A DNA stretch of 64,000 nt. Source: Bolinopsis microptera. Lineage: Eukaryota > Ctenophora > Tentaculata > Lobata > Bolinopsidae. A program made the translations under genes and the position numbers. Shown piece by piece: positions 1 to 58,952 of the stretch (position 1 is the stretch's first letter; the number at the start of each line of letters is the position of its first letter). The stretch covers positions 5,311,096 to 5,375,095 of the forward strand of contig NC_087080.1 in NCBI RefSeq assembly GCF_026151205.1, read 5' to 3'. Under the pieces are notes generated by a model. It had not been told where the DNA came from, ran no database searches, and was given only the letters and a program-made list of their open reading frames with translations.

Positions 1-1511
1 TGCCGAAGCAAGGTATAGATAAGACTAGAAAGTTGGGCGATATAAGACAAAATAAGAATTTTGATAGCAGATAGGAAAAAAATGTTGTTTTTTTCCTATC
101 AGTGTCCTGATTATTTTGGCATTTGGTTTACAAAGTTATTTTTCTTTTAATGTTTAAATATGTTCCATGTTGCAATTTCCTCCGATACTCAATATCCCCA
201 CTTCCTTTTTCATGTTGAACAACGAACAACATAACCATCGAAACAATTTAGTAAGCTTTGCTTCTAGTTGTTTGGTCCAAATTTATACGTTGCACACTTT
301 TGTAGTTGTATTAGTGTAACAATAGATCAGGGTTCTTAAAAGTATAGTGGCGTTACAGCCATTTTGACGCGCTTGTTCATTGCACTGAAAGCGCGAGAGG
401 GCTCTGGTTAGAGCAAGGGCTGAAGCCATCCGATTTGCTTTTCCCGTCGATGTTCACACTATAAGTACAGTATAAGACAACTTTAACACGAAATTCAGCA
501 GGATCAGAAAGAATTATTTTGCCAATACTACAAGTTGCAAGTACATTGTCATTACGCATTGACTTGGTTTTTGTCACGTCTCCGATTTCTATAGTTTTTT
601 TTTCTTCAGGTAAAAGCGAACGTTACAATTAGAAGTCACTGAAGTCTAGCCAGTTGGTGAAAAAATAATTTTGGGTTACAGGGGAAATTCGTTTACTGGT
701 GATCTGGACTCTGGATGCACTTAACCCTGACTGCTGACGCGACTCCAGACTTGCGATTTCTCAACATTGTGATAAAATTAAGGATGAAGAAAACATGGCA
801 GCTTATTAAGTCAATGGTGGATGGCGAGGCAGGGAAGAACCCATCTAAAGCGTCTCCTCTTTTAACATAAACAGAGTTATTATTTTTATAGTTATATTGC
901 AGGTTTCTGAACCTCAAATCAAACAGCGATATCAGTGATATGAAAATAATCCAATAAATACATCTCAATCGTAATTATCACACTACATACCGATGGCGGT
1001 GTCACACAGATAAAGTTAAACATTTATATTAGACAAAAATATCTTTTAATTCAAAGTTACTACAAAATCTGATTCAGGATTGGCAAGGAAGAGAACTGAA
1101 AAATCGGTCAAAGCTTCGGCCACTTTTATACGCTTAATCATAGCAGGATCGTTATGTTACGGTTGGCACATGGTATCGGTCTCATAAGGACAAATTAGGC
1201 ATTTCATTTATGGAAACAAATAGACACCGATAAGTGAAAACGTGCCTCTACATCGCGCAATAATCTTACGAAATAATCCCAAAAAAGATTTTAAATTTCA
1301 AATAATCAACTTTAAACTCCAAGGAAATAAAAATCATTATAAAACAATGCTGTTATTAGATATTTACAACAGAACCATCATTAAAAAGTCGTCAAATCAT
1401 ATCGATTATCAAAACCAATCAGTCACCCAAAAAAATGGGTCCTAAAACATCTCCTAATTTCTGCTCCTAATCTTTCACTAAAGAAAATTAGTTTCATCAC
1501 ATGCATCAAGG
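1..1511. other. Intergenic, downstream of the glypican stop
   Basis: I see no supportable gene here. The short open frames have no splice context or homology that I recognise. Around 365-420 there is a stretch matching, in reverse orientation, the dispersed repeat seen again near 28090-28160 and 41700-41770 (shared core reading AACCAGAGCCCTCTCGC). The part next to 1512 should contain the glypican 3'UTR, but I could not place a convincing poly(A) signal. Confidence 0.6.
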
Positions 1512-29188: not shown

Positions 29189-32100
29189 TCACTTTAGAGC
29201 GGTGTCTGCGTGCTTGTTCACCTTATTCCACTTAGCAACCAGATTGTTCATGCCCTTGTGTTTCTTGCTTCCAGACCCCATTATCAGTCCGTCTGGCTTT
29301 TTCTTCTGAAAAATGGGGACGTGAACACAAAAATGGGGACGTGTGGTCTACTTTAGAAAGTGTGAGTTTGGTAGCCTATTAAAGTTATCGCGCTTCAGAA
29401 GGCTTAGTTACAGTTATTATAGAAGGTGAATAGTCTGCAAAAAAAATAAATACGGACCTTCTTCAAAACTTCCTTCGTTGCTGCACTTTTCTCTTCTTTT
29501 TTCTCACTTTGTTTGCTTCCTTCAACTTGTGTCCCGTCCTACAGAGAAATTTCAGATATTAAAAAAGCTTTTGGGGTCCCACCCTAAAAACAGTTGTAAT
29601 CATTATTATAGCTATAAACATACATATACAAACCATAACCAAGTCAAATTTCTGTGAATTTTGGCCCCTGTTGACCATTTAATCTCTGTTGACAGCAAAC
29701 AGCGAAAAAATAAGGATTCTGTCCATCAGTGAGCTCTGAGAATAGTTGGTTAGCGCATCATTATAATTGTTATATATTCAGATAATAATCTATGACACAA
29801 ATAACAAATGAGTGATTATCTAACAGTAACAATGATAATATGGATTTGAAACATATATGAAAGAAGGTGACGTATGAAAGAAATGGGAGTTAAAAGCAAG
29901 CGATGGGTAAATCGCTGCCATGTTTCAAAATAATATTGCTTCATTCAAGGATTAAGTAAAATAACAAATAAAGCATAGGTATATGTATTAATGAGTAATG
30001 AAGAGGTAAACAAATAAAAGACCTTGTACGATTCTCTAATATTATATGGAGGTTCTAAAGATTCGATCCGCTAAAATACGAGACAAAGACAAGCAATAAC
30101 TCGATAAATGATAATAGGAATAAAAAATCTTACCTGTCCCGACGTTCCCTCAGAGATCCTTAACATTTGAAAATATCACCAGTAGTACCTCACACATGAC
30201 ACCACTATCTTGAGATTTCTATACACCGCAACTTGCATTTCCTCCTATCAACTCTACTTCAACCTTTGTTCATACCTCCCTAAATCCCTAAATCTGGAGT
30301 TAGCATCACATGTTGCGGGTGAGGAAATTGTAGCAGCTGCACCTTTCTTACCTTGTTCTCAGTCGGGGGCGTTTCCTCCGAGGGGGCAGCAGGAGAGGAG
30401 GGAGCTTTTGTGGGGGTTCCGGGGGCAAGAGGAGGCGTGCTATACCTCATGGGCGCTTTAACACTCACAACACTAAGGGGGAATCTGTTTTAATTCCAAG
30501 AAAAATGTCAATTCCAGGAAACTGGAGAAATAGAAGTTTTTTTCAACTTTCTTGAACAGTTATAATAATTAGTTATCGAGAATTGAGATACACAGGAAAT
30601 AACTGATTTAAAGGCGCGGCTACTGCACTATATTCAGCGCTTTACTGCAAGAATAAATTATTATTAAACAAAAAGCGATCTCCTTACCCTAGATCTTCCT
30701 GTTTTTTCTTCTTTTCTTCCTCATCCTCAGAGTCACTGTTACCCGGGGAATAGGTCTCCATCATACCGTCGTCGGGAGGAGGGGGCGGTGGGGCTGTCGG
30801 CATTCCTGGAGGATAAGCAAGTTCATTACGCAACTGTGGTAAATGTTTGAAGATTCGGATAACAAATTGATAATTGAGACGTTATTGCAAGTTTTCACTA
30901 TATAAAACGAGGGTGGGCGACAATTGACCCCCCGACAATATAATCTAATACAATTGACCCTGACCCTGACCATAACCCTAACCCTAACCCTAACCATAAC
31001 CCTGACCCAGGACCCTAACCCTAACCCTGACCCTGACCCAGGACTCTGACCCTAACCCTAACCCTAACCCTAACCCTAACCCTAACCCTAACCCTAACCC
31101 TTACCCTGACCCAGGATCCTGACCCTAACCCTGACCCAGGATCCTGACCCTAACCCGATCAATTGACCCCAGTGTAATTACATGGGGGTCAATTGTCGGG
31201 GGGTCAATTGTCGTACTAAACCCTAGATTTCGCGACAATTGACCCCAGTGTAATTACATAGGGGTCAATTGTCGGGGGGTCAATTGTCGGGGGGTCAATT
31301 GTCGCGGTACCATAAAACGAATCTTAGAAAGTTCTAAAACAATCCAAAGCAACAAGAAAATACACAAATTTTACGAACCAGGGAAATGGCTCATCCCGTT
31401 CCATGGCTCCATAACCACATTACCCCACATATCCTGGTAGTAACCCTGAAGTGGAGCAGGTGGCGGTGGGGCAGGTGGCGGCACATCGCTCGGAATTGGT
31501 GGTACAGAGGGTGGCAGAGGTGGAGTGGGAGGAGGAGGAGAGGGAGGAGGTTCCGCAACTGGTTCTGTGGGTGGAGGTGAGGGGGTTGAAGAGGAAGAAG
31601 CAACCTCCGGCGTCTTGTCTTTGGTTGACGTCTCAATCTGAAAAAGATTATTGGTAAATGGAAGTATGTCATTAGAATTTTTGCAAAAATAGAATGAAGG
31701 TCAACTTGCTATATTCTCTCCACTTCAAACTTTGGTATTATACGGTACGGCGATTCTTCAATCTATGTAGTTAACCGACGCTATCGAACAAGTAAAATTC
31801 TAATTGAATTATGACAATAACTAAGATGCAATGATATTGGTGATCGCAATATGTGATCAAAAATTCCTGAAAAGATTGAGAATTGAAAATCGCAATATGT
31901 GATTAAAATTCCCCGAAACAAATCGAAAATAAAAAATAAAAATATAGATCCCATAATCATGATAATTGTTCACTAACTAATAAAACGCGGCTAAAAATCT
32001 ATTTGAACGGTTGTCAGCTAAAAGAACCCTGCCTGTTAAAGAACATGTTTGAACGGCGCATTTCAAATGCATACCTGTAATTCATATTTAGTATTTTATT

Positions 32101-35100
32101 CTTAAATCAGTTCAAACGTATTCCTCTAAGTTAAGCGCCTTCAAAAGATCACCATGAACTAGCATACAATGTTTCGTGGTCGTGCATTTCATCTTAGAAG
32201 AGTACGTACAAAACCTGCACTTGAACTGAAACCGAAAGGTATGGTGCTTGGCATGTCTCTTCAGCTGAACCATCTGCCTGGCCGCATATCCGCAATCCCC
32301 ACACTGAAAGGGACGTTTGTCCTCGTGGATCCTCATGTGGGTGTAGAGATTGCCCTTCTGGTTGAACTCATGACCGCAGATCTGACACTTGTAGTGGTTT
32401 CGGTTGACGATGTCGTGGTGTAGTGGAAGAGATGGTGGAAGAGAGGGTCCATGTTTCGATTCTTTGGAGAGAGTTGGGCGGCTTTCCTTGTTCCGGATAA
32501 GGACCGGTATCCGCGGATTCTGATTAGATGGTTTGATCAAGGGTGAAGAATCCTGATGAAATCTGATTTTAGCGCTTTGGCCTGGTTTGCGAGACACATC
32601 ACTTGTGTACAAAGGCAGCGCCCAAGTCGCAGGAGAGCTGGTATTTGACAGCATCCCATGCTGAGAGATTGTATTTGTAGTAGAGATCCTGTTATCCAAC
32701 TGAGGAAGGACGTTTAATTTCTCGCCGCTCGGTATCCATCTAGATAAATCAATAGCCTCCTCCTGCTCCACTTGATTGGGGCAACTGTCAAAATCAACGA
32801 TACCCTTCAACGAAAATATTCCGTTGATATGAAGACATCGAACGCGTACACAGCTTTGGAAATGGGCAACATTAAAATCTTCACCGATAGCTTCCTCGGG
32901 CGAACTGTCATCTTTCTTCGAGGGTAAACGATTAAAATCAGATAAATCGGCATGTCCTAACATCTTCCTGACATCCGTCTCGTTTTGTTTCTTGATAATT
33001 GTGCTGTCTTGATACGTGGGACCAAATCCGGCCTCGGTTACGGATGCGTTGTTGAAAGCTGGGTGCGGGATGTGAGCTGGGCGTGGTGCGTTTTCCGCCA
33101 TTACCGGAAGAAACATTTCTCCGTCTGTATTCAGGATGAAATTATACAAATGTGATTGTTAGGAGATATTACAGACAAATTAAAATGAACTGAAAGGTCT
33201 AAAATGAAACCATCTTGTTATTTTAGTATCGGGTGATCAGCTGAACGAAACAATTTTGCACGAATACTATTTATGTACATGCAAATAAGCGACCGTCTCG
33301 GAAGAGGTAACGTCCGCCACCGGACAAAAATGCATCATTATTCACCGCAGTTGTTTGTACACTACGGTTAGAAGAAGTCGGCAGTAAATTAATAAAGTTA
33401 CGAAATTTTTAAGTTTCATGTAGGAACCGACCGGATTGGGGTTTTGGCTGCCGGACCGGATTCAGCCGGATTTGGATCTCAAATCCGGCAAGCCGGATTT
33501 TGCCGGACCGGAACCGGTGGTTTCAGAGTGAAATAAAAGGCAGCCGGATTTTGCCGGTTTTTGCCGGAAAATCTCCTTCCTTTCCACGCCTAATCTTCAT
33601 CGAGAACTTCTTGCAGCTTGCATAAGGGATCCCATTTTCTTCTGAGTAGAACAACCAGACGGATGATGTTTTAGATTTACTACTACTCGACTCGACTTAG
33701 GGCGGCTTCAACGTCCGAACAGATATAGTTTTTTTACAAATCTTCCTATCTACTACTAGACATTGCTTAAACAAGCAGTACGTAGCAGACACAATGTAAC
33801 ACGAGTAGACACGAGTCACGACACTAGACGAGTAATAATCAGAAATGATATCTAATTGGCATATGCTGCCAGACCCCTGATTGAGCGCGTTTGTGCGAAT
33901 TCCCTTTTTTTCATGCAAGTCTGAGTATCATTGGGTCACGTGACTTACAACCAGAGGTGCTTAATAAGGTTGTTCGTAAGCAGGCACTGTCTAGTACAGT
34001 ACTAATCACCGTCTGGCGTCTAGAGCTGAGTCACATGATTGCAGTAATGAGCTAATTAAGTAGCTACCCAGACCCTGAACACGTGACCTTCATATTTCGT
34101 ATTTCATAATCAGAAGATTAAATACTGCAAATTTTGCGATTATAGCCGGGGGCTAGCCCAGGGAGGTGGCCCAAAATATTTTCCGGTTTTTTCTAAGTCC
34201 GCACCTACCCCTCGATACACTATTCTGTATTCTGGACTCAAGGTTTCCCCCGGTAATGCGATCTCGGAAGGCAGGCCTCCCCTTTGCAACACGAGCTCGG
34301 AAGCGGGAGCTCTCGTTACAGGAGGTACGTCTCGAGAACCACTCGGACCGAAATTTTTTAAGTTAAAATTTTTCGAAGTTTTTCTGAAAACCACTTTTTT
34401 GCACGATTCAGGCTACCCTGTTCATTATTAGCCGAAAATATTTTTTCGGTTTTTCGAAGTCCCCACCTACCCCTCGATACACAATTCTGGACTCGAGGTT
34501 TCCCCTGGTAATGTGATCACGGAAGGCAGGCCTCCCCTTTGCAACACGAGCTCGGAAGCGGGAGCTCTCGATACAGAAGCTGTACGTCTCGAGAACGACT
34601 CGGACCGAAAACTTTTAAGTTAAAATTTTTCGAAGTTTTTCTGAAAACCACTTTTTTCCACGATTCAGGCTACCCTGTTCATTATTAGCCGAAAATATTT
34701 TTTCGGTTTTTCGAAGTCCCCAACTACCCCTCGATACACAATTCTGGACTCGAGGTTTCCCCTGGTAATGTGATCTCGAAAGGCAGGCCTCCCCTTTGCA
34801 ATACGAGCTCGGAAGCGGGAGCTCTCGATACAGGAGCTGTACGTCTCGAGAACGACTCGGACCGAAAACTTTTAAGTCAAAATTTTTCAAAGTTTTTCTG
34901 AAAACCACTTTTTTCCACGATTCAGGCTACCCTGTTCATTATTAGCCGAAAATATTTTTTCGGTTTTTCGAATTCCCCAACTACCCCTCGATACACAATT
35001 CTGGACTCGAGGTTTCCCCTGGTAATGTGATCTCGAAGGCAGGCCTCCCCTTTGCAATACGAGCTCGGAAGCGGGAGCTCTCGATACAGGAGCTGTACGT

Positions 35101-38100
35101 CTCGAGAACGACTCGGACCGAAAACTTTTAAGTCAAAATTTTTCAAAGTTTTTCTGAAAACCACTTTTTTCCACGATTCAGGCTACCCTGTTCATTATTA
35201 GCCGAAAATATTTTTTCGGTTTTTCGAAGTCCGCACCTACCCATCGATACACAATTCTGGACTCGAGGTTTCCCCCGGTAATGTGATCTTGGAAGGCAGG
35301 CCTCCCCTTTGCAACACGAGCTCGGAAGCGGGAGCTCTCGATACAGGAGGTACGTCTCGAGAACGACTCGGACCGAAAAATTTCTAAGTCAAAATTTTTT
35401 TAAAGTTTTTCTGAAAACCACTTTTTTCCACGATTCAGGCTACCTGTTCATTATTAGCCGAAAATATTTTTTTGATTTTTTTTCGGTAAAAAAAACTGAA
35501 ATCCGGCAAAAATCCGGCAATTTTTTTTCCAGCCGGAGCCGGAACCGGAACCGGATTTTGAAGCCGGATATCCGGCCGGAACCGAATTCAGCCGGATTTC
35601 CGGTCGGTTCCTAGTTTCATGCAATAATTATTAAAAATTGGGGTTGCACAATGGCGCGCAACACGGGACATAGTAGCAAATCATATACAAGCAACCGTGA
35701 AAAGTGGAAACAAAATGCTGGGTGTGCGATCAATTGTCGATTAAACACCACTGTAAACTTTAAAATGAAAAAAGTTGACAGTGGTAAACTTTGTGTGGAG
35801 ACTTCTAATATAATGGTACGAGTTAATCAGTTTCTTAGTATCGGTTCTTAATTGAGGTATCTCAACACTTATTTTACTTCGGACATTCCAACCGCCACAT
35901 TGTTACACAAGTGTGTAACCAGCCAATTACAGGAAGCCGAAGGATTCAATTATACATTAGGCCAGTGACGGTTAAGGTAGTGTGTACCATACTTTCTTCG
36001 CCCGAGACTTTGCTGCAATGGGCAGCTCCTCATTTAACCCTCACACCCGATTTCTCGAGTATTTGGCTGAGTGGACCGGGGGCTGCATAGACCACTCAGG
36101 ATCATTAGCTGAGCGTCGACGACGCTCACCCCACGGCTAGTGACAGAGTCGGGAATCGAACCTGGTGGGGGGAATGCAACGTCAATTAATGTCAATTAAT
36201 GTCAATTAATGTCAATTAATGTCAATTAATGTCAATGTCAGTTTTGCAAAATTTTGGAATACTGACATTAATTGACACGATATTTTTCGACCAGAGATTA
36301 TGTAGTTCTACCATATTTTTAGCACTTTAGAACGTTTATATCATCAATTTATTCACTACTATCACATATGGAAATGTGAAATGTGAAAAATTCAGATCAT
36401 TAAACAATAAAACTAAAATAATACGGTTTCCCGAAATTTAATTTTCTTAAATGGGCGTGGCCATTTAAGGGCGTGGTTCTCAACATCATCAGAACTTAAA
36501 ACCCACATTAAACGAAATGCCTTCATGACATTTATATTTGAATAACGAATCTTAAACAGCTAACATTACTCCTTCATACTAAAAAAGCCGATTCTAGATA
36601 TTTTACCTGTATAAGAAACCAATAAAATATGGGCGTGGCCGGTGGGGACCGAAGATGGAAGAGTTCGAAACTGAATTTTTTTTGGTGGTCTTTGAACCTA
36701 CGGATCAACAGATAAGAACATACTCATAATTATTCAAGGACATTTTGTTTTTTTGAACTGGTCTAACTTACATAGACGTGAATATCTTGAATATTTATCG
36801 AATAATGATAATCTCAAATTTCAAGACATATTAATGTCAATTAATGTCAATTAATGTCAATTAATGTCAATTAATGTCAATGTCAGTTTGGGGTTTTTAT
36901 GGAATACTGACATTAATTGACGTTGCATTCCCCCCAACCTGGTACCTCAAGCAATACCAGGCGGATTAACCAACTGAGCCACTAAGCCGTTGAAGTTGTT
37001 TTTGACGTAGTTTTTGAGTACGTGGTTTTTATCTCAGTTTGTATAATCATCTCGATAAACATTCTGATCAAGTGTGACCCTGTGTCAAGTAAGATTTCAC
37101 ACGTTGAAGAAGATACTCAAGCACACGTAGCTACTACCTTATTTAAGTAGGAAAAAAATGTGAACACAGAAATAAATTACGAAAGTTTAGAGTGGAAATC
37201 ACTGTATGTACATGACAGGTTGTCGGTAACACATCAAAGGATGTCCAGGATGCCTGGGGGGGGGGGGGGGGGGGGGGGCAACCATATTAAAGTATATTAA
37301 AATGTAGGATTTTTCCCGATTTTGACCCGGGGATGTACTTTAATATACTTTAATATATCTACAATATACTTTAATATATCCCTATCTCCTTGGAGGCCTA
37401 CATCAAAAATTGTTGCCCAAAATAAATGCAATTCTTAATCGATTCCAAAAAGTTCTTGAAAAAATATTGAAAACTGATGGAGTTATTTCAATTTTAATGA
37501 AGTCATTTTGGCTAGTATTCCGAACCGAGATATTATGTGCAATTTTCCCAATTTTGTTCATGGAGGTCTTTTTACTTAGTATCCACTATATTCAACAAAC
37601 ACTGAGTTATATCTTTCACATAGAGTTAGTCTCATTAAAAAATATTGAAATTTTATCGAATTTGGGCAAAAGCGTATGCCCAAATATGGGCATATTTTTA
37701 AAAGCTCATAGCTCAGCCAATTTTTGACCAATCTGGATGGAAATTCATGTACTAGTCCAGGACTAGTAGTCCTAAAACAGGCTTATCTTGCGAATCTGAG
37801 TGAAAAATATAGTTCATCATGTAAATCTTACGGGTATCGGCCTTACAAAATGACAGGCCTCACAAAATGACAGCCCACATAGACCATGCTGTAGCTTAGG
37901 TTCCCTATACATTGAACCCTATTCCTTTTACTGTATGAAAGAAAAAGCATTATTTAACACTTCCCAAGGAATGATTATGACATAGAATCTATATTTCTTA
38001 CATAAATATGGACGTTTTTGCTGTTCAGTCATTGCCCCGCCTAACTGTTACCCAGAATGGAGACCAAAGTTTTGAATTTAACCCCAGAAAACCAGGTACT

Positions 38101-41100
38101 ACCATGACTTATGTCAATCAAAGACTACTCTGGTCAAATAAAAAACTGATTTAGTGACTTTGGTAGAAGAAATGACAAAAAAATGACCTAGCCTCACAAA
38201 ATGACAGTGTTATGCCTCACAAAATGACAGTTTTATTTTATGATACAAAGATGGCATATTTATATTGGATGCCCCTTGCCTAATTATTGGTATTCTTAAA
38301 CCCAGTAAGCTCATGATGAGCCTAAATGTGTTTGTTTGATCATCAATTTTGATCAAAATGCCTCACAAAATGACACCGAAAAGCCTTACAAAATGACAAT
38401 GTTTCAGATTGAATTATTTTCATCATCTAAAATGGATCAGAGACAGTCAATACAAGAATGAGTTAAAAATAATCATAATCTGACAGTTAACAATCAAGTA
38501 GCATTAAAAAAGTGCAGTTCTGATATCAAAACTTTGATTTCAAACTCTTTGATTTCAAACTCTGATTTCAAAACTCAACGAAATAAAGCTTCTATTTTGT
38601 GAAAGCAGAGAGTAATAACAACTCCTAAAACATGTCAAACGTTAACTAAACACTGAAAAGTGATCTATCCAGTCATAGAAAATATCAAATATAACCAAAT
38701 ACTGTGTTCAAGTATGAAAACAAAAAATGATTTTTACGCCTCACAAAATGACATTTTTTAAACTTTTTCAAAGTATAAAAAATGTTCCTTTTTAAATATA
38801 TTTTGGTAAAAACAGAACTGGTATAATATAAACAACATATACATATATATATCTAACAGTAAGACACGTGAAAGAATAATTCAACTTTTTCCCAAATCGG
38901 ATTTGAAGTGATGCCGTTTTGGGTTGTCATTTTGTAAGGCACTATCTCACGCGAAATTGCCCAACTTTTTTAATCATCCTTTTTCCTGTAAAAGCTATTC
39001 TAATCTTCAATCTATTATATTTATGTAACTGTCCTAGGTGAAATCAAATTTCTATAGGCTGCTGTTAAAAAATGACAGCCGTGACGAAATTGTCATTTTG
39101 TAAGGCATGTTTTTTTGGAAGATTTCAAAGATGACAATTTTTATCGCAAAATTTACGGTTTTTCAATCAAATCAACCCCCGGGAAGAAAAATATACCTGT
39201 TGAACTACCTATCTGGATAATAAAACATGAACAAAACTCATTTTTGTGCATTTCAGAGCCATCTCCTTTTTCGTGTCATTTTGTAAGGCCGATATACGTA
39301 ACGAAGAATATAAATCTTTTAATTGTAGGTATATTAAAGTATATTAAAATGTAGGATTTTTTCCGATTTTGACCCGGGGATATACTTTAATATGGTTGCT
39401 ATGTTGACCCCCCCCCCCCCCCCCCCCCATGCCTGCTAGTTTTGAAGAAGATCCTAAACTACACTAAGCACTTGGGCAGCTCGATAGACACTCCATTGTA
39501 AACACCAACAGCTGATCAGCAGTTGTATTTATGTATTTCCCGGCCGCAACTTTAGTTTCTATCAGTCTATAGATTTTTTCATTTCCTGTGTCTATTTTCC
39601 TAGGTCTCTTTTGGGGGGGGGGGGGTCAACCTCATTTTACCTCACGAGGCCAGCCAAAAAAGGCAAAATTGGGATGAGGTAAAATGAGGTAAATAAATCT
39701 AGTTTTCTAAGCCTTTTTTTAGAGACAAAAAAGGTTTATTCGAAGTCATTATACTATAATTCGAGGCTGTGCATGGTCTCCCATGATATTTAATGGTTTA
39801 TTAGGGGTGATGTGGTCCCTGGGAAGGGGCATTCCCAGTTTAACCTACTTACTCTCCAAACTTGGGGTAAATAAAACTTCGCATTGTTAGGCCCTAAACA
39901 ATCAAATTCTTGTTTTACTAGGCCTACGTCATATGGGGGTGATTCGGAATCAGCGTCCAAAAATACACCGAAAAAGATTACTTTTATACCTTCAGGGCCT
40001 TTTCACAATAATTTTCTTAAAATCTAGATGAGCGATTTAGTAGGAGCACGTTGGTACAGCAATGTCAGCTATGTTGACCCCCCCCCCCCCCCCCCATGCC
40101 TGCTAGTTTTGAAGAAGATCCTAAACTACACTAAGCACTTGGGCAGCTCGATAGACACTCCATTGTAAACACCAACAGCTGATCAGCAGTTGTATTTATG
40201 TATTTCCCGGCCGCAACTTTAGTTTCTATCAGTCTATAGATTTTTTCATTTCCTGTGTCTATTTTCCTAGGTCTCTTTTGGGGGGGGGGGGGGGGGGGGG
40301 GGTCAACCTCATTTTACCTCACGAGGCCAGCCAAAAAAGGCAAAATTGGGATGAGGTAAAATGAGGTAAATAAATCTAGTTTTCTAAGCCTTTTTTAGAG
40401 ACAAAAAAGGTTTATTCGAAGTCATTATACTATAATTCGAGGCTGTGCATGGTCTCCCATGATATTTAATGGTTTATTAGGGGTGATGTGGTCCCTGGGA
40501 AGGGGCATTCCCAGTTTAACCTACTTACTCTCCAAACTTGGGGTAAATAAAACTTCGCATTATAATTATTATTTATGAAAAGAAAATTGGACATTACAAT
40601 TTCCATGATCCATTAGGATATTGTAAATAGCACTTGCTAAGTTTTGTAAAGGAATTAGCAATAACTTTAGTGTCACTTTGGCATTGCCAATTTATGGGGA
40701 TATTTCCGCATTGCATGACATGGACCATTTAAATAATATCTTAATTTGATATTGTGATTATCGAGTCACTCTGAAACAAATTGTGTCTAACTAGACCAAA
40801 TGAAAACAACAGTTGTGCATGGAACTGGATTGGATATCTACATGAATTTAGTCGAAATTGCATAGTGAAAGGTAATTTTATAATAAATTACTCATATAAA
40901 CTCATACTTCATACAATTCTAAGTTCTTATGTACATGTTCAATGTTCATGATTCGCTGTAGAATAAAGGGCGGTTCAGAAAACCACATTTCGTTTAAATA
41001 ATTAGATATCACCTCTAATTAGTTGCTCTATAGGGTCGGGAACAACCAAAAAAAAATTTTTGTCTCTACGGTTTCGTATAATACTGACTTGGGCCACGCC

Positions 41101-44100
41101 CATATTTTTCACTAATTTTTAACAGGTAAAATTCTCTAAATCGTCAATTTAGTCACGAAGGAGTATGGAAGGAGTTCTAAATGTGTGCTCCTCTAATATA
41201 AACAGTAAGAAATGGTTAACTTTAGTCGAGGTCTCAGGTCTCTACAATGTCGGGAAGTTCCTGCAGGAATTTGCGCATTGCGCTTGAAGCGCAAGATTCA
41301 CAGCGCCAAAAGCGAAGGTGGTAGAGACATGAGACCTTGACTAAAGTTAACCATTTCATACCATTGCTATTAGAGTATGCCACTTTCAGAGTCCTGAACA
41401 CACTCCTACAGCTCTTAATCGTCAATTACATGTATATGAATTTTACCTGTTAAAATATATCATCTTTAACTGATATCAATTTAGTTTAACACTGTTAATT
41501 TTTGTTTTTAACATAATACTTCACACTTTATTAGACTTAGAGGACTTCGACGCGCCGCGCAAACTAGCATTCTTGTTTCGAGCTGGTTGCTTCGAGATGG
41601 TTGCAAAGCCAAAAGCAACGATCTGGAAGGTTTGACATCATCAATTCAAAATGTTTTAGTGCCATGTCATGGTATTGGGTATTTTCCTTATATAATTTGT
41701 TCTACCTCTCTCGCTTGCAGTAGCGCGCGACTGCGCGTCACGCAGTACGCTTAGACTCATGGCTATTATACTAGGTGAACCATATATTACATTTTATAGA
41801 AAATAATAATTTGATTATGCTACGACCAATAATTATTGTGACACGAAACCACAATTTTATAGCTGCGCATATTGTTATTATTTTACATTCACAAAAATAT
41901 TTGTTTCAAATCGTCGACGAGCCCAACTCGGCGTGTGTTTTGGTAAATTGTAACCTACAACAAGTTAAATTACACCGTAGTATTATATGAAAATCGAGCG
42001 ATGAAGCAAATATTACTTGGCCGCGACGATTTGAAACAAATATAATCTACTGACAACAATGACATTGCATTTCAACATAGCTGACATTACTGAACCAACG
42101 TCAACAATCTTAAGAGTGTGGACACGAACGGAAACACACAACGTAAGGTTTGAAATCTTCGTAAAACTACATCATTAGAGCCTGTAAAAACATTTAACTT
42201 TAAGATAAGCAGGAAGACTGGGGCAGGAATTTGAGCCAAATTGACGATCAACATGAATGCATTGCTACAACAATGACATTGCATTTCAACATAGCTGACA
42301 TTGCTGTACCAACGTGCTCCTACTAAATCGCTCATCTAAATTTTAAGAAAATTATTGTGAAAAGGCCCTGAAGGTATAAAAGTAATCTTTTTCGGTGTAT
42401 TTTTGGACGCTGATTCCGAATCACCCCCATATGACGTAGGCCTAGTAAAACAAGAATTTGATTGTTTAGGGCCTAACATGAAAATTATTTGTTTGATTAG
42501 GCAACAACATGGTCTCGCACTTGCTATTATTGTACCCTGAAATCCGAAATATCAGATTACGATTATGACTATCAGATAACGATTAATCCTCATTGTATCA
42601 ATCATACTATGTTTCCAGAACCTTCAACGGTTTCTTTATTCTGAGAATTAACATCGCGAAAATAGTGTTGACAAATATTGTCGTGACCCCAATATTTCTA
42701 AGAATGAAGACACCAAATTTTTTTATGAAAATCTTTTCAAAATTTACATACAATATAACATGTGGCGCAAAATAAAAACAAAATATAACTGATTGCGATC
42801 TCTAAAGGACAGATGTATGTAAATTTCAAAGGGAAACCAGAACGCAGTAAAATTGTAGTCGAAACCACACCGCACAAGCCTAGTCCCTGGTAAATGAAAA
42901 TCAATCAAATAATATGTTGATAAAAAATCATATCCCATCAGTCCTTCTCGGAGCTTACGATCTTATTGTTCCTTATAACATGAACTCGCTGAGGCTCCAA
43001 TTCCCGTTTCTGCTTAACTTCAAGAACTAACTTCCTGAAGGCAGCTCTCTGCTCGGCTGATCGGTCGGGGCTGATGTACACTGAGTCATACCCCTCCACT
43101 TCTCTTAGTTTTCTCGCTTTGCTCAACACTTGCCGCACATGATCTGAGCCGCTGAGAGTGAACTTGATAGGTTTAACGGCTGGTCCTCCATCTGATACAG
43201 TTCTCCCCATCCTACAGCAAGAAACGATTCGAGGTTTCTCATCTATGTTTTCTAGTACCTCAAGCACTCTCTTTTCCAGGATTTCTTCACTCTTTTCTGG
43301 TAGACCGTAGATGACCAGATTTTGACTACGATCCTCTTCCTCGGAGGCACGTTTCAGAGCAGCTTTCATTTTCTTAGGCGCTAGCGCCTTGCTGCATGAA
43401 TTCTTCACAACTGACGACCAGGCTTTGAGTTCGCTTTTCACTGTCGTCTGAACAGAGGTCAAATCTTCACTTTTCTTCTCAAGCAATTGTCCTTGCAGTT
43501 TAATCACAGTGTTCTGATCTGCAATCTTTTCGTCCTTCAGTTGGTCGATTTCATCTTGTAGTTTGGTGGCTGAAAACAACAGCGGTGAACAATAACTGTC
43601 GAGAATGTCGATAAAAGTTTCCATCCAATCACACAGCGTAGCCTTGGTGATCTGAGGCTTGTTGAGCGTTTCTTTACGTAACACATTGGATTTCTGAACA
43701 CCTGCCGCTTGACGCATATCGTTGAGTAGCATAATCTGAGCACCCAAAATCTGTTCAGCATACATTGATCTGAATTTGAGTGTAGAGTAATTCAACGCTA
43801 TTTCATTGTCAAGATTCTCCAAGTATTTGTTAACCATGATGTACAATGTACACGCAGGGCCAGTTTAATATACACGAGTATATTATCTGCTACACAGTGA
43901 GAGCTGTTTAAACCGACGCAAAAGCAATTAACTGATAAGACAAAAAAATGGTTATGAGTTTTACATGAACATGACAAAACAAATGAAAAGGAAGCCCTCC
44001 TGCAAACTTCTTTGTTGAATTTCTTTGTTCAGGTGAGAAGTTGCGCAAAAGAGCAAAATAATAAAAACTTAAGATGTTCGTGTGTCGAACTTGGTACAGA

Positions 44101-47100
44101 GCAGCAGGATATTGATTTACCTGAAGATTACACCCGCCACGCCCCTTCTTTTATGTTTACAAACATATAAAAAGTAGGGACGGTGACAACACTATAGCCT
44201 GCACAAAAGAGATCATTGACGACTATTGTTATTAAAGGATGAGGGGACCTTAGAATTTACTTCCAAATATTCGCGTTGTCCTGTGAAAGTGTGTAGAATC
44301 AAAAAATACACCGGACTGTGAAATCGATAATTCGTGCAATATCACGCCGCGCTCCTATTGGCTGATGGCAATTTTGGGCTGTGACGTCACTTATGTGTTA
44401 AGACCAACGTGCGCGCGCACCCTTTGCTCGTGTCAACATTTTGTACTGTTCTGTTTTAATTACGTCGTGTTACCTTTGGCGTTTGCGAGAGCGGTATCTT
44501 TGGTTGCACTGAATTAGTCTAAGTTACGAATAATTCTCTTTAATAATAATAGTTAAATGTAACTCAGAAAGGCTATCTTGTAGTTGTAGTAGGTATTTCT
44601 ATTTATAAATAGCCAAGATAAGTAGCATCCGCTAACTAAACCACAAACTGCTATTTTGTTTTGACTTGTTTGAAACCCGATATGGACACAATTAAAAAGA
44701 ATGTATGATATAGTAGAAGACATTTTACTAGCTGGCCCTTGGCGCCTCTAGTCCTATCTGAGTACGCACGTGCGGTTTGACACTGCGCTTGTACCGGCCT
44801 TTAGTTGTACACTCAATTATAATTTACCGTTTTAGTTTACTGTGACTTGAGTGTAAAGCGTAACGAATGTGGATGTGTTCGTCTGCTATGCTTGGTATAA
44901 TATTGCTTGGTGTAATAGTTGCAAATCTTGCTTACGTTATAAGTAGTGTCACATAGTGAGTTAGAACTTAAAAGCTTGGTGCTTGTCCAACTGGAATGAA
45001 GACATGCATTTCATACCTACCCGATCCATTTTTATTAGGACCGTGTTGTGTTGATATGACATGTTGATATATCAACTGTGGTACGAAACAGGGAGTTGCT
45101 AGGTGTTACGTTGGGAGCTATAAATATACATAATTTACATGCCTTTCTGTGTGACTTCAATCTTATTCCAGGTGTATCTCGGCTCATGGTTATCGTAGGG
45201 TGATAATTCTTTTTTCAACCGGTCATAAAAAGTCTCCTCTCCATTGGTTATAGGCTCGTTAGTATCGTAAATTGTTAATTTATTCTTAATTAGTAATTTA
45301 GTCGGCCCGCACGCTCATTTTACCTGTATTTCTATATGCGCGGATCAGAGCAACTCACATAATTGACGTCACAGGTTCAAATTGTTTTGGCTGGATATCT
45401 CGGCGCGCGAATGAAATACAACTTTGCGGATTTCACTAAAGTGGTTTATACGATTAATGTAATTAAAGGATTTGCACGAGAAAAAAACTTTTTCTAAGGT
45501 CCCCTCATCCTTTAAAAAGTAGCACATCTTATCGAGCTCACGTTATATAAAATCTCTGACAGTTAAACTCAGCATCACTACGAAATGACCATGTTGAGTT
45601 CCGCACTCCTCTTCATCTCTAGCCAGCTGGTCTAAACAATCCAAATGGAGTTCGGCTGGCACTTTGCCGGGGTACAGCTGTATCTCCGTGTCAGAACCAG
45701 GACCACAAGACTGGAACGATAACAAGTTGTGTCAGCTATGTTGGAATGCAGTATTGTAACAATAGTTAATAGCTAATATAATATAAGTTGCCCCCTTCCT
45801 GGGGCAGGAATTTGAGCCAAATTGACGATCAACAATACATTGTTACAACAATAACATTACATTTCAGCATAGCTGACATTGCTGAACCAACGTCAATAAT
45901 CTTAAGAGTGACCGGTGACGGTAAGTGACCCGATGAGCCCCACTTCTTGTCAAATTATTTTTTGGATTACGACCCAATCATGAAGTAAAAAGTATAAGCT
46001 GCAGTTTAACGGCAAAATAAAGCTAATTTTAGTTCATTAACGTCATACTCATAGGTGTGGAGGATCAATGCGGCTACTTTTAATTCTTTAAACTTAAAGT
46101 TTTAAGTTCAAAGTTTGAACTTGATACATGTTCAATGTTAACTTTAAGTATCACAAATATCGCGCGCGAAAAGTGGTATGCAACGTATATGTCAAGCCCA
46201 GTGGCAAATAGTCAGGCGTCCAGGAATTTAACACCTAGTCAAAATTTGTTGATAACCGGTAAAAAAAGATTCTTGTGGAAAAAATATTCACATTAATTTA
46301 AAATTAAATCAAAATTGGTCGCTCTCAGGGCTAACGCGATGTTACATCATTTTATCGACTCGAAGTTCGAATCGAGCGCATTCCTAGATTCCATGACTAT
46401 TTCTTACCTATAAGATTGCTTGACTATTTTTTGCGCATTCAGACACCAAAAAACGCGCAGAAAACGCGAGCTATCCATTCCTCCTTCCTCAACAACCCGG
46501 AATATGAACAAATAGTCATGTAAAATAGTCATTTGAAATAGTCATGCAAAATTTCAGCTCTGATACGCTAAAATATCAAGTTAATCTTAAACAATCGACA
46601 ATCTAATATGAATCCTCCCAATCCTCCCAGCCATATTAACTGGTGAACGGTGTAAATATAGAGCGGTATTTTAAAATGTAGCATTCTAAATTTTATGGAT
46701 TCAAGTTGGCTCCTTTAGTCTAGATTCATTTAGAAAATTCTCGAAGTTCGAGTAATACAGTATTCTCAGGGTTTGGTGCTTAAGGAAGCTTCACATCCGA
46801 GACCGATTTCCACGAATCAATTTAATATTGTAGCTACAAGTCAACAACAGTGCAAGTGGGAAGGAAGTGAATCTAGCCATTGCTACTATATCAGGGGAAC
46901 TCGCGTGTTCTAGGCTTAAGCAAGTTTCACATCCTAGATCATCTAGAGTACAGTGCAACCCCCTCCATTATACATCCATATCCCGCTTTAAGTCCGAAGT
47001 TTATCATTGTTTATTATCCAATATTGTATCTAACCTGGCAGAAGCAAGCTTCAGATCCATAGTCAGGCCATAAATATCGACACAAGGTCGAAGCCACTAT

Positions 47101-50100
47101 CAGAGTAGCGAATCGTTCATCATGCTGATGAGAGTCCGATCTTAGCGCTCGTTCTTCCGAGTTAGTATGAAGAATAGTAAGAAAATCTGTGGGCTAGGCT
47201 GTATAGTTCTTTTAAAAAATATTTCCTTGCGTTTCAAATAAATTAAAGAATTCTCAGAAATTTTTTATTTAATTTCAAAATTTGCAATTGCATATTCATC
47301 CGGTAATTATTCTAATGGATACGCTAAGCATTTCAAACTAATCTTGACCTGGGAGAAGAGCTGACCAGTGACAAGTCGGCCGCAAAGCGGCCGAAAAATA
47401 TATAGCCTTTTTTTCTTCCCAAAATGGATTCCTAGTCATATTTAAAATTTATTCCACTGGGATGTCAAGTTTGAACCAAAATACCCTTTTCTGCGTCAGC
47501 TGCATGCCATTACAAGCTCAAAAACGCTACTGACGTATTCTCCATAAAAAGCACTTAATAGCGTAAGAGGTGATTTTAAACGATTCCCCGTCCAACTCGG
47601 CGTGCGTCTTGGTACATGTTAGGTTATAAACCTACAATGCATAAATAAAAACTTGAGATGTTCGTGTGTCGAACTTGGTACAGAGCAGCAGGATATTGAT
47701 TTACCTGAAGATTACACCCGCCGCGCCCCTTCTTTTATGTTTACAAACATATAAAAAGTAGGGACGGTGACAACACTATAGCCTGCACAAAAGAGATCAT
47801 TGACGACTATTGTTATTAAAAAGTAGCACATCTTAGTAGCTAACATGTAAAATTCATATACATGTAATAGACGATTAAGAGATATGGGAGTGTGTTCAGG
47901 ACTCTGAAAGTGGCATACTCTTATAGCAATGGTATGAAATGCCAAATGGTTAACTTTAGTCAAGGTCTCATGTCTCTACGACCTTCGCTTTTGGCACTGT
48001 GAATCTTGCGCTTCAAGCGCAATGCGCAAATTCCTGCAGGAACTTCCCGACATTGTAGAGACCTGAGACCTCGACTAAAGTTAACCATTTCTTACTGTTT
48101 ATATTAGAGGAGCACACATTTAGAACTCCTTCCATACTCCTTCGTGACTAAATTGACGATTTAGAGAATTTTACCTGTTAACATTTTTGCCGAGATTTAC
48201 CTCATTTTACCTCACGAGGCCAGCCAAAAAAGGCAAAATTGGGATGAGGTAAAATGAGGTAAAATGAGGTAAAATGAGGTTGACCCCCCCCCCCCCCCCC
48301 TCTTTTTTTAAGTCAGACCAAAAATACCAACGGAAGTTGAAAGTTTGAAACACGATATATAACGATCGAAGGTGTCTTAATAAAACAGCTAGTGACTTGG
48401 AGAAATTTCTGATTTGAACCGTCAAATATCCAGCAGGAAATGACTCATTGTCAACCCTCAAGAGCTGTCTAGATTATTATTATACAATTTTCGGTCAGAG
48501 TCGTCCTCGATACGTACCTCGCACTGCAAAGAGGGCTGCCTACAGACACAAATTGAAAACTACAGAGACTACGCAGGTATGATGATAGCCAATGCAGGAT
48601 TATATCATAGGACATATAAAAACATTATCTCACCTCACTGATTTCTTGTTGGAACATTTCGTACAGATCATCATCGTCATTCTCACGCTCGGATTCGCTG
48701 TCGCTCGAACCTATATTTATAAGTACGAATTAGGATTAATGAGCTCAGATAAATGAAACAAAGCTTGCAAAAATCATTGAATTTTATTGGTTCGAATTTT
48801 ATCGGGTCGAATTTAATTCACATTGGGCCGTTATTTTTAGTATTACAATATTATATAAATAAACATAGTTGTAATAAATCATAAAGCTCTGGGAGCTCTA
48901 CTGCGTCTTACCGTCATCTTCTCCAGGATGCGTAAGTTGAGATTTCCCCGTCATCTTGTTGGAATAACGATACGTTTTCTCCTCCCTGGCCATAATTTGC
49001 CATAAGAAATCATTATGATCAATGCTTTACGGGCGAGAGGTATATGTTTTGCACAGTAGAATCATTAAAAATCATCTTAAAAGGCGGACGCGACATGTAA
49101 ATCTGTGGCCTATTAAAGCCTATCTAACTAATAATCTCAAGAAATCCGTATGTGTGTACTTGACCCAAACTTGAATTTCAATTGGAAACTAACCTATCAA
49201 AAGTACAGGTCCAGTCTTTGGTAACGGAGTTCTCCTCGTGAGATCGCAACATCTGTCCCAGTTCATTAATCTTGCACTGGACGTAGGACGCACTGAGGTG
49301 ACCTTCAATAAAGTCACTGATCCTGGTCTCAACCTGGATTATCTGAATTTGAAACTTGCTCAGTTTCTTTAGATCCCCTCCCCAAAACTCTAGCTTCTCT
49401 TTCAATAATGCTGCCTCCTTTTCAAGTGCTCTCCGGGAGTCCTTGTCGATCTCTTTTAACGGGGATTTCGACTTCACTTCTTGGAAGATCCTGCGTTTTT
49501 TGCTTTCTTGTTTCGGAGAACCTGGTTTCTCGTTGTTCTTCTTCTCGCTGTTCTTCTTGTCGCCGTTCTTCTTGTCGCCGTTCTTCTTATCACCGTTCTT
49601 CTTCTCCTCACTGTTCCTGCTCCTGATCTCTTTCACCTCCTCCTTCTTTTCTGCTGGTTCCAAAACTTTCTTGCTCAACTTCTGCTCCTCAACTCTTTTC
49701 TGCAGGTGTATCCTGGCATTTGTCAGAGCAATTTGTTGTTTCTTCCTCTTTATCTCCGCTGCTATCTCAGTCACAGTTCTCTGTCTCCCGGATGGAGTGT
49801 GGGTAGGAACTGTTACTTTGGGCGGTGCTGGAATGTGCTTTGGTGGACTAATTTCCCGAGGGGGAGCAGATTCTTCAGGAGCAGGGGACGAGGCTTTCTT
49901 CACGGTGAAGGTAAGGCGTGCTGATGACTTTGTCGCTGATGAGACTTTTTGTTCGGCTTCACTTTTCATGAATTTGAATTTTCCTATTTTACCAAAGCTG
50001 CCTGATGGATTATCTGACGTTATCCTTTCGGGATCGTTTTCAAGTTCAACCCGAGGGGTGATACGCGGCAGTGTGGGTTTAGGCTGAGATTCAGCTAGCT

Positions 50101-51144: not shown

Positions 51145-51600
51145 CTACAAACGACGACCTCTTCGTCCTCCCTTCCTTCTGGTACTATCAGTGGGAATGG
51201 GGGTGACATCCTCTATTCTGCCGATCTTCATGCCAGATCGAGCGAGTGCTCGGAGGGCATTCTGGGCTCCGGGTCCGGGGGTCTTTGATTTGTTGCCACC
51301 AGTCGCCCTCAGTTTGATATGAAGAGCTGAGATTTTCAGAACACGACACCTTTCAGCGACGTCTTGGGCGGCCAACATAGCAGCGTAGGGAGAGGATTCG
51401 TCTCTGTCTGCCTTCACTTTCATTCCACCGGTAACTCGGACCAAGGTTTCTTTGCCGGACAAGTCAGTCACGTGCACGAAGGTGTCGTTGAATGAGGCGA
51501 AAATGTGAGCAACTCCGAAAACTTCTTCTCCGTCTTTGACTGTTGGTCCGAGGGAGATGTTCGTCTCCTCCTTGGCAACCTTTCCTTTTCTTGGAGCCAT
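51145..51600 (-). CDS. RPS14: Small-subunit ribosomal protein uS11 (RPS14)
   Basis: A complete, intronless 151-aa frame, the same length as the vertebrate protein and nearly identical to it along its length. It includes the [20 protein letters not shown] and [15 protein letters not shown] stretches and the basic tail ending [11 protein letters not shown]. It binds 18S rRNA in the platform of the 40S subunit and is needed for subunit maturation (family knowledge). The start is certain from alignment. Upstream, TACTAAT and CCGTAG/ACTTAG signals lie within 45 nt of the ATG, as for an SL acceptor or 5'UTR intron. Only 264 bp separate its stop from the FNBP4 start on the same strand. Confidence 0.97.
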
Positions 51601-51867
51601 GTTTAGAGCTTAGCTAAGTGCTACGGATATTAAGATTAGTATACTTGAATGTCTGTTTCACAATAATATAATATGCATTTGACAATGAAAGTATTAAGAA
51701 TTACAAGTTGATAAAATTTCGATAACTCCTCATTAATTGATTGCATGATACCAATTATACTATACCCAACTTTTACTGGGGGCAAGTGAAAGAACAATAT
51801 TAACACAATTAAAGATTTAAACTTCGCATAAACAGTTGACTGAAAATCAAGAATTAACGTAATATAT

Positions 51868-54768: not shown

Positions 54769-55161
54769 TTAAGCTTTGTTTCGTTTACAGGATCCTAATT
54801 CGGTCTTCTTCTTTCCAGACACCTTCTTCTTTCGGTTCTTCAATTCCTTCCTCTGTCTTCTACCTCCGGTCTTATCTTTCTTAGGCTGGAACCTTGCTAA
54901 CCTATAAGTTGGCTCGATCTTGTTCATGGAATCTGCGTTATCGTAGATAAGAGCAAATCCAGTGGATCGACCGCCACCGAAGTCGGTTCTGAAGCCGAAA
55001 GGCATGACCACGTCAGCGGTCGTTCTGTACATGGTGGCAAGCTTCTCTTTCAGCTCCTCTTTGCTGAGGTTCGCCTTACCAGGGTGTATGATGTCAACTA
55101 CCATCTGCCTTCTGTTCAGGATACGGTTTGTGATGAATTTTCGGGTCCTGATTGTAGCCAT
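54769..55161 (-). CDS. RPS24: Small-subunit ribosomal protein eS24 (RPS24)
   Basis: A single-exon 130-aa frame matching eS24 from the TIRTRKF start through HPGK, the KEKLATMY helix, [20 protein letters not shown] and the basic tail. Vertebrate proteins begin a few residues earlier (MNDTV), so the start here is either genuinely shorter or lies in an upstream exon: the ATG is preceded by CCCTAGCCTCAG-AC, a strong acceptor with a CTAAC branch-point-like word. It is a component of the 40S subunit needed for 18S rRNA processing (family knowledge). Codon use and context are those of a highly expressed gene. Confidence 0.96.
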
Positions 55162-56128
55162 GTCTGAGGCTAGGGAGGGAAAAATTCACGGTTAGATTTG
55201 GATTATTTGAAATCTTTTTGCTGAACAAATTATTAAAACTTAATCATTTAAAATGTAATGATAATCAGTATATCACAATATATTACACAAATTTTCATAC
55301 TTATGACTTGCAGCAGGACTCGAAAATGAAAAACAAATGGTATAGGTAACATAATAAAATTCATTTAATCAATTAATTATGGTAATAAAATAACCTAGAT
55401 TACCAAAGTCAACGAAATTTTGTATCAATATGCAGGCATTATAGTGGACCGATTTGAAAATGGCCTTTGGTGAGTGTTAACCCAGGAGACTTCAGGATGA
55501 TGTGTTATGATAGTGCAACCAATCAGATTTCGGTTACATTTAACAACCAATTCAATAGTTGACACTTGGTTAAAGAAAGAAACTTAAGAAAGCCAAAGAC
55601 CAATTTCAAATCGGTGCACTACGGTTGTGTCTGAATTCGGTTTAAAAATATGTAGAATATTGTTAGAATTGACATTTGGTAACCTAATACAAATAAAGAA
55701 GGCACTGAGAAGAGCAATCAATAAGTTTTTACTGATGCGATGGAAACAAATCATTTGAAAAGTGCCCGCCTTACAAATTACGTATATCCGCTGATATATA
55801 AAGTTCAAATCACACACAATGTATTAAACAGTAAAGAGTAATGACTTAAGACAATTATTTAAACTTGATAAGAATAGTTGAGAATATACTGAATCTTTAT
55901 TTACAAAAATACAATATGTAATGTAGCCAGCTTGTAAATTTCGATCGGCCAAAAGCGCGGCAGTATGGTTGGAATAACCGTAGAGTTATAGTCTTGAGAC
56001 TTTCTCTACACGGATAAAAGGTACAATCGATACATAAACATTATAAATAGAGAAAAAGCCAGCATCTCAAAACCATCTTTTCTGATATAAAAATTTTATG
56101 AACACTCAATTCGTCCTCATGAATCATC

Positions 56129-58459: not shown

Positions 58460-58952
58460 TCTAACTGATATAATGGATGGTTAGTAAATAAAATTAATCT
58501 TCAATTAATACAAATATGAAATTAGATTGTATAATTTTAAGGAAACAGAATACAATTAAGCTTCTCAAAACCAGAAATCGTATCGAAATATCAATAATTT
58601 ACACACATTATATTATCAACAATATTTCTTTCGTACATTTTGTAGATTTCAGTCAACAAATAGAATGCTTCTGTTCATGCACGTGAAACATGCAGCAAGG
58701 TCTCAAAATAAAACTGAAGACATCTATTACAAAAGACATTTTAGTTACAAAAAAAGAAATTTGTGGCAAAAGATAAATTTTCCCAGCTACAGTAGGCCTA
58801 AAAGGCGTGAGCGAGCTATTAAACCATTTTCGAATATATTTTAATCGAAAAACTGCAACTGCAAAATAAGTTTCTTCCCCAGGCTAGGAACTCTTCAAAT
58901 TATAAGGGAAGATTACAAAAAATAAAGCTAAAGGACGTAAGAAGTCTGGCGT

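What the first reader, a model, noticed from the sequence alone, without database searches (positions are those of the whole stretch)
37256..39428. Ten copies of a 16-bp motif in mirrored arrangement between G and C homopolymers
Seen: seven plus-strand copies of GCCT(C/T)ACAAAATGACA followed by three inverted copies, the outermost pair sharing a longer word (TATCGGCCTTACAAAATGAC-like), in a segment bounded by 23 G and 21 C with TATATTAAAG modules. Such spaced, oriented motifs suggest binding sites for a transposase or other DNA-binding protein. I know no described family with this design.
Basis: partly seen in the sequence, partly recalled or inferred. Interest (0 to 1): 0.7.

Follow-up and report, generated by a model that had tools for sequence, protein, structure and literature searches.

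The report
Nested transposons with repeated 16-base sites
In what looks like an animal genome, a small mobile DNA segment without recognisable genes carries ten near-identical 16-base sites facing inward, probably docking sites for the enzyme that moves it, inside (or as part of) another mobile element whose ends are long runs of G and C; the parts resemble known kinds, but I did not find this combination described.

Summary
GCCTYACAAAATGACA occurs exactly ten times in 64 kb, all at 37840-39289, seven plus then three minus; no copy there has 1-3 mismatches. Flanks of the copies are largely unrelated, so the conserved unit is sharply 16 bp.

Best reading: non-autonomous DNA transposons. Segment D (37828-39301) has 28-nt inverted ends that contain the outermost motif copies; the motif is most likely a transposase or accessory-protein site, as in transposons with subterminal repeats. 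D lies inside (or forms the core of) element A (37256-39428), with G23/C21 termini, ATGCCTG on both sides and ends built of 10-bp repeats, like Foldback elements.

Two neighbours share A's plan: B (36167-36935, exact 8-bp flanking repeat AACCTGGT) and C (40280-48300, weaker flanking repeat). In all three the palindromic end module lies in direct, not inverted, orientation, and a G run plus CAAC caps both ends.

Not shown: protein binding, a transposase, the superfamily, D's own target duplication, or copies elsewhere (host genome not held; scans of viral and prokaryotic contigs gave only two chance-level 18-mers). Rated a new variant of a known kind.

The parts
37256..39428 (.). Element A, 2173 bp: outer Foldback-like element, G23 ... 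C21, flanked by ATGCCT(G)
   Evidence: (ATGCCTGG / ATGCCTGC, 7 of 8, two bases taken from the G run)
37250..37256 (+). Left candidate target-site duplication ATGCCTG (last G is the first of the G run)
39429..39435 (+). Right candidate target-site duplication ATGCCTG
37279..37366 (+). A left cap CAACC plus palindromic module of TATATTAAAG repeats
   Evidence: (z -4.0)
39320..39407 (+). A right module, same direction as the left one (63 bp, 97%), then inverted cap
   Evidence: D7; z -4.1
37828..39301 (.). Segment D, 1474 bp: holds all ten motif copies; possibly a nested element (minimal form 37837-39292 between TA and TA)
   Evidence: (I4)
37828..37855 (+). D left inverted end TTACGGGTATCG + motif copy 1 (T form)
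   Evidence: (I4, 93%)
39274..39301 (-). D right inverted end TTACGTATATCG + motif copy 10 (T form)
   Evidence: (I4, 93%)
37857..37872 (+). motif copy 2 (C form)
38191..38206 (+). motif copy 3 (C form)
38214..38229 (+). motif copy 4 (C form)
38360..38375 (+). motif copy 5 (C form)
38383..38398 (+). motif copy 6 (T form)
38738..38753 (+). motif copy 7 (C form)
38925..38940 (-). motif copy 8 (T form)
39091..39106 (-). motif copy 9 (T form)
36167..36935 (.). Element B, 769 bp: same plan, G6 ... C6, ATTAATGTCA modules, exact 8-bp flanking repeat AACCTGGT
   Evidence: not scanned for protein domains
40280..48300 (.). Element C (candidate), 8021 bp: same plan, G23-TCAACC ... GGTTGA-C17, TCATTTTACC modules, flanking TCTCTTTT/TCTTTTTT (7 of 8)
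   Evidence: no Pfam match at E 0.1 in six frames

Best explanation
The stretch is a stack of non-autonomous DNA transposons in what looks like an animal genome. The ten 16-bp copies belong to segment D (37828-39301), whose inverted ends contain the first and last copy. Each copy is most likely a recognition site for the transposase (or a helper protein) supplied in trans; many inward-facing sites would load several molecules, raise specificity and help pair the two ends before excision. D lies inside, or is the core of, element A, a Foldback-like transposon with poly-G/poly-C termini and 10-bp-repeat ends, which made a 7-8-bp target duplication on insertion. Shown: exact copies, orientation, inverted ends, flanking repeats, shared plan with B and C. 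Inferred: protein binding, transposition in trans, nesting.
For: Ten exact copies, none elsewhere in the window; 16 bp sharply bounded, flanks mostly near background, so the copies are not remnants of a longer duplicated unit. The outermost copies form part of D's inverted ends. No Pfam match at E 0.1 in six frames over 36934-39428, as for a non-autonomous element. Of 156 G-run/C-run pairs (runs >=5, within 12 kb), 5 have 8-bp flanks matching with at most one mismatch; these are A, B, C and alternatives made by the tandem duplication, against 0.14% for random pairs. 7 of the window's 11 hairpin loci (arms >=12, loop 10-60) are end modules of A, B and C, one of them the duplicated copy. The six G or C runs of 9 or more in the window all sit at ends of A or C or at duplicated copies of those ends.
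Against: No transposase was found in A or C by Pfam. D has no convincing target duplication: TA on both sides of the minimal form, or TAAATCTT 8 bp that does not abut the inverted ends (a match of that length turned up in 3.6% of random flank pairs). No second copy of A or D is known: the host genome is not held, and scans of viral and prokaryotic contigs gave no match for paired motifs, D's 21-bp end or module words and two single 18-mers. The TSD rule was set after I had seen A and B. C's flanking repeat is T-rich and imperfect. Known subterminal arrays vary more: 83-100% similarity in Jozin. A's right cap has nine extra bases, so A's two caps are not strictly symmetrical.
Confidence: 0.62

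Rival explanations
1. One integral element: the motif array is the normal interior of A, and D is not a separate insertion. The motif would then be the docking array of A's own transposase, lying inside the G/C caps.
For: D lacks a clear target duplication; A's flanking ATGCCTG encloses everything.
Against: The motif stops exactly at D's inverted ends, with none in 572 bp on the left or 127 bp on the right; beyond the motif D's ends have twelve further positions of which ten match; D sits off-centre in A.
Confidence: 0.25
2. A host-protein array carried by a transposon: the sites bind a host regulator or insulator protein, as recalled for the insulator array of the gypsy retrotransposon, and help expression or chromatin rather than excision.
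For: Sharp, exact, spaced copies fit any sequence-specific protein; sites spread through the whole of D rather than only near its ends.
Against: Orientation flips toward the right end and the outermost copies lie in the inverted ends themselves, which an insulator does not need. The gypsy comparison is recalled; the one search tried was rejected by the tool.
Confidence: 0.1
3. Recent copying or homogenisation of a 16-bp unit without function (slippage, gene conversion, template switching).
For: No intermediate copies with 1-3 mismatches; a rearrangement that looks like template switching lies next door.
Against: Flanks are largely unrelated and start-to-start spacings are 17, 334, 23, 146, 23, 355, 187, 166, 183; slippage gives tandem, not dispersed and mirrored, copies.
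Confidence: 0.08
4. Assembly artefact (homopolymers or duplication).
For: Homopolymer lengths differ between duplicate copies that are identical in the gapless blocks (C21/C18, G13/G23).
Against: The long G/C runs sit at element ends beside flanking repeats; apart from A's own end module and cap and the duplicated right end, no self-match of 40 bp or more in the window touches A (which printed only matches of at least 40 bp).
Confidence: 0.03

Closest known systems
CACTA transposons with subterminal repeats (Jozin, Chenopodium; PMC8978399, passages seen)
   Same: subterminal 10-20-bp units in direct and inverted orientation; 19-23 copies of a 12-bp motif divided between both ends
   Different: D's ends do not begin with CACTA, no 3-bp duplication seen, copies spread through the whole segment and exact apart from C/T; no transposase found
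Galileo, P superfamily (PMC3688188, abstract and introduction, passages)
   Same: Foldback-like ends; several sites for one transposase DNA-binding domain in the TIR, shown there by footprint and gel shift
   Different: Galileo's TIRs are 0.5-1.2 kb; here the inverted caps are 19-28 bp and no THAP domain was found in A or C
Tm1 Mutator/Foldback elements of root-knot nematodes (PMC3169594, passages seen)
   Same: composite ends with 13-15-bp tandem repeats, target duplications of 8-10 bp in 45 of 53 elements, groups without transposase beside a transposase-coding group
   Different: A, B and C use 10-bp repeats folded into a hairpin module, poly-G caps, and the module is direct at the two ends
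Tetris (Drosophila virilis; PMC4079207, passages seen)
   Same: non-autonomous Foldback element, 8-10-bp duplications, internal tandem repeats in the ends
   Different: about 220-bp repeat units in terminal inverted repeats

Membership tests
Foldback-like elements (A, B, C) | ends made of short tandem repeats | tested here: met
   10-bp arrays in all three (37336, 36181, 36830, 48244)
Foldback-like elements (A, B, C) | long inverted repeats that fold back across the element | tested here: not met
   only caps of about 19-28 bp (G runs apart in A and C) are inverted across the element; modules align in direct orientation. C's 341-bp inner inverted pair is itself imperfectly palindromic and may be separate insertions. 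So I say Foldback-like, not Foldback
Mutator superfamily | 8-10-bp target-site duplication | tested here: inconclusive
   B exact 8; A and C 7 of 8; hAT and P elements also give 8 (recalled)
Mutator superfamily | MULE transposase | tested here: inconclusive
   no Pfam match in six frames of C and of 36934-39428, which is also what a non-autonomous member would give; the rest of the genome could not be searched; not filed as Mutator
CACTA (for D) | ends CACTA...TAGTG and 3-bp duplication | tested here: not met
   D's ends read TTACG (or TCGGCC in the minimal form) inward; no 3-bp repeat beside either (read)
CACTA (for D) | subterminal short repeats in both orientations | tested here: met
P superfamily / Galileo | THAP-domain transposase | tested here: inconclusive
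   no such domain in A or C; a partner elsewhere in the genome could not be searched
Tc1/mariner (for D) | TA target duplication | tested here: inconclusive
   TA lies on both sides of 37837-39292, but the inverted repeat continues outside it (read)

The most novel reading that the evidence does not exclude
A, B and C represent an undescribed group of eukaryotic DNA transposons defined by poly-G/poly-C termini followed by CAAC and by a palindromic 10-bp-repeat module lying in the same direction at both ends. The direct modules could be opposite isomers of hairpin ends, so that the elements pass through a hairpin-ended stage (as in the flip and flop ends of parvoviruses, recalled), with the 16-bp array as docking platform.
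Probability: 0.12. Interest if true: 0.75.

Novelty: new variant of a known kind. Interest (0 to 1): 0.45.

Why it matters
Exact, countable docking sites in a short element would make it possible to test how site number and orientation govern end pairing in a transposon. The shared poly-G/CAAC caps with direct palindromic modules, if they recur genome-wide, would give a clean signature for a transposon group that repeat finders expecting inverted ends could split or miss, and would explain long G/C homopolymers in this genome.

Tried and rejected
Tandem-duplication origin of the motif: rejected, flanks are largely unrelated. TAAATCTT as D's target duplication: not accepted, it does not abut the inverted ends and a match of that length turned up in 3.6% of random flank pairs. 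RNA genes: none at gathering score (Rfam), no tRNA (ARAGORN). Protein-coding content of A, C and the FLYWCH neighbourhood: no transposase domain; B was not scanned. Relatives: viral contigs with the paired motif and with module words of A, C and B gave none; an 18-mer of D's end gave two contigs, about what chance gives by my own rough estimate of the collection's size, and I did not read them; prokaryotic contigs none; phages none. All of these except one search were exact-pattern scans, so diverged relatives would be missed. C as the coding partner of A: not supported, no domain and different repeat words. Literature on G-tract ends and on flip/flop ends: nothing to the point. Rows left out of view: one search shows 25 of 119 inverted pairs; one search prints only self-matches of at least 40 bp; one search prints one row per group of overlapping words.

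Full report
Observation. The window holds exactly ten copies of GCCTYACAAAATGACA, seven plus then three minus, all at 37840-39289. Shuffled sequence gives none at zero mismatches and a mean of 1.42 at up to three. Aligned on the motif, 15 of 16 columns are invariant in 10 of 10 copies and position 5 is C or T five times each; of the 25 columns on either side only one (-8, A in 7 of 10) exceeds 1 bit. There is no copy with one to three mismatches inside the element; at four and five mismatches there are eight look-alikes, slightly above the largest of 27 control tiles (six). The copies come as three pairs (spacing 17, 23, 23) and four singles. The T form makes up the two outermost copies, copy 6 and the other two minus copies.

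Inner segment D. The outermost copies lie in a 28-nt inverted repeat, TTACGnnTATCG plus the motif (I4). The motif does not occur in the 572 bp to the left or 127 bp to the right within the G/C runs. So the array is bounded by its own inverted ends. A target duplication for D is not settled: TA flanks the minimal form, but the inverted repeat runs on outside it; TAAATCTT occurs on both sides but away from the ends, and a match of that length turned up in 3.6% of random flank pairs. Nesting is therefore likely but not proven.

Outer element A. Outside the G23 and C21 runs lies ATGCCT(G) on both sides. Inside them lie CAACC (GGTTG at the other end) and a palindromic module of 10-bp TATATTAAAG repeats with a G+C-richer loop. 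The two modules, 37284-37346 and 39331-39393, match at 97% in the same direction (D7), while the outer 20 bp are inverted (I17). The right cap has an extra CTATGTTGA before the C run.

Two neighbours. B (36167-36935) begins G6-AATGCAAC and ends with its inverse (28 bp perfect); its exact 8-bp flanking repeat is AACCTGGT; its ATTAATGTCA modules are again direct. C (40280-48300) begins G23-TCAACC and ends GGTTGA-C17; its modules, made of TCATTTTACC repeats, are direct over 65 bp at 100%; its flanks TCTCTTTT/TCTTTTTT match 7 of 8 in a T-rich tract, so this is the weakest of the three. A scan of all 33 G runs and 19 C runs of five or more gave 156 pairs within 12 kb, of which 5 had 8-bp flanks with at most one mismatch, allowing the repeat to use up to two bases of the G run; these 5 are A, B, C and alternatives made by the tandem duplication between A and C. 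Random pairs pass at 0.14%. The rule was set after A and B had been seen. A scan for hairpins (arms of 12 or more exact, loop 10-60) gave 11 loci in the window, 7 of them end modules of A, B and C, counting the duplicated one. Module direction being direct in 3 of 3 has a one in eight chance if direction were random. The six end stretches fold better as single-stranded DNA than their shuffles, z -3.6 to -6.6; 1 of 200 shuffles did as well for B's left end, none for the others. The pattern GGGGN{0,4}CAAC gives 21 overlapping matches against 4.0 in shuffles; three of them (21953, 32778, 45787) lie at none of these ends.

Mechanism. Inference from anatomy and from known families: a trans-acting transposase would bind the 16-bp sites, several molecules would pair the ends, and excision and reinsertion follow. 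Repeated sites of this kind are known: CACTA elements have subterminal 10-20-bp units in both orientations (PMC8978399, passages), and in Galileo repeated sites in long ends were shown to bind the THAP domain (PMC3688188, abstract, introduction and passages). For A, Foldback-like ends with short tandem repeats and 8-10-bp duplications are known from Tm1 (PMC3169594, passages) and Tetris (PMC4079207, passages). The Galileo paper states that whether the tandem repeats of Foldback and Phantom elements act as binding sites was untested at the time.

Limits. No genome of the host is held. That the host is an animal is my judgement: an open frame matches ribosomal protein S24 chains of many eukaryotes (the table names no organisms, and that the top entries 4v6w and 6xu6 are fly ribosomes is recalled); CDC5L and S14 were recognised from memory. 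Scans of viral contigs, prokaryotic contigs and phages gave no relative; none of these collections is where an animal transposon is expected. No Pfam match at E 0.1 was found in six frames of C or of 36934-39428. Repeat libraries of animals were not available, so 'not described' rests only on eight paper searches.

Verdict. A real and well-ordered feature, most likely transposon anatomy of a known kind in an unusual combination. The direct palindromic end modules with poly-G caps deserve a genome-wide count.

Noticed in passing
39398-39885 and 40068-40561: Tandem duplication between A and C, identical in its gapless blocks, with different homopolymer lengths (C21/C18, G13/G23). Copy 1 continues into 193 bp that match 42286-42478 in reverse (99.5%) and rejoins at 10 shared bases GCTATGTTGA, which looks like template switching.
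   Followed up: partly
41119-41452 and 47841-48181: An imperfectly palindromic stretch of about 340 bp, two copies in inverse orientation (95.6%) near the ends of C; either C's inner ends or two insertions of a separate small element.
   Followed up: partly
30918-31306: Telomere-like ACCCTA array (30957-31156) between copies of CGACAATTGACCCC, which occurs seven times in both orientations.
   Followed up: no
34169-35480: 257-bp tandem repeat, 5.1 copies, 95% matches.
   Followed up: no
36159-36166 and 36936-36943: B's target AACCTGGT lies in GGGAATCGAACCTGGT, which looks like the T arm of a tRNA gene or tRNA-derived repeat on the minus strand (recalled); ARAGORN reports no tRNA in the window.
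   Followed up: no
2986-3444: Open frame with a FLYWCH zinc finger (Pfam E 7.7e-10), a domain that I recall from some animal Mutator-like transposases; no transposase domain within 1501-5000.
   Followed up: partly
51145-51609, 54769-55185, 56129-58480: Long uninterrupted open frames resembling ribosomal proteins S14 and S24 and CDC5L (S24 tested, the others from memory).
   Followed up: partly
42938-43864: 308-aa open frame inside C that resembles ORF1 proteins of LINE elements (recalled); only two Pfam matches, both far below their cut-offs.
   Followed up: partly
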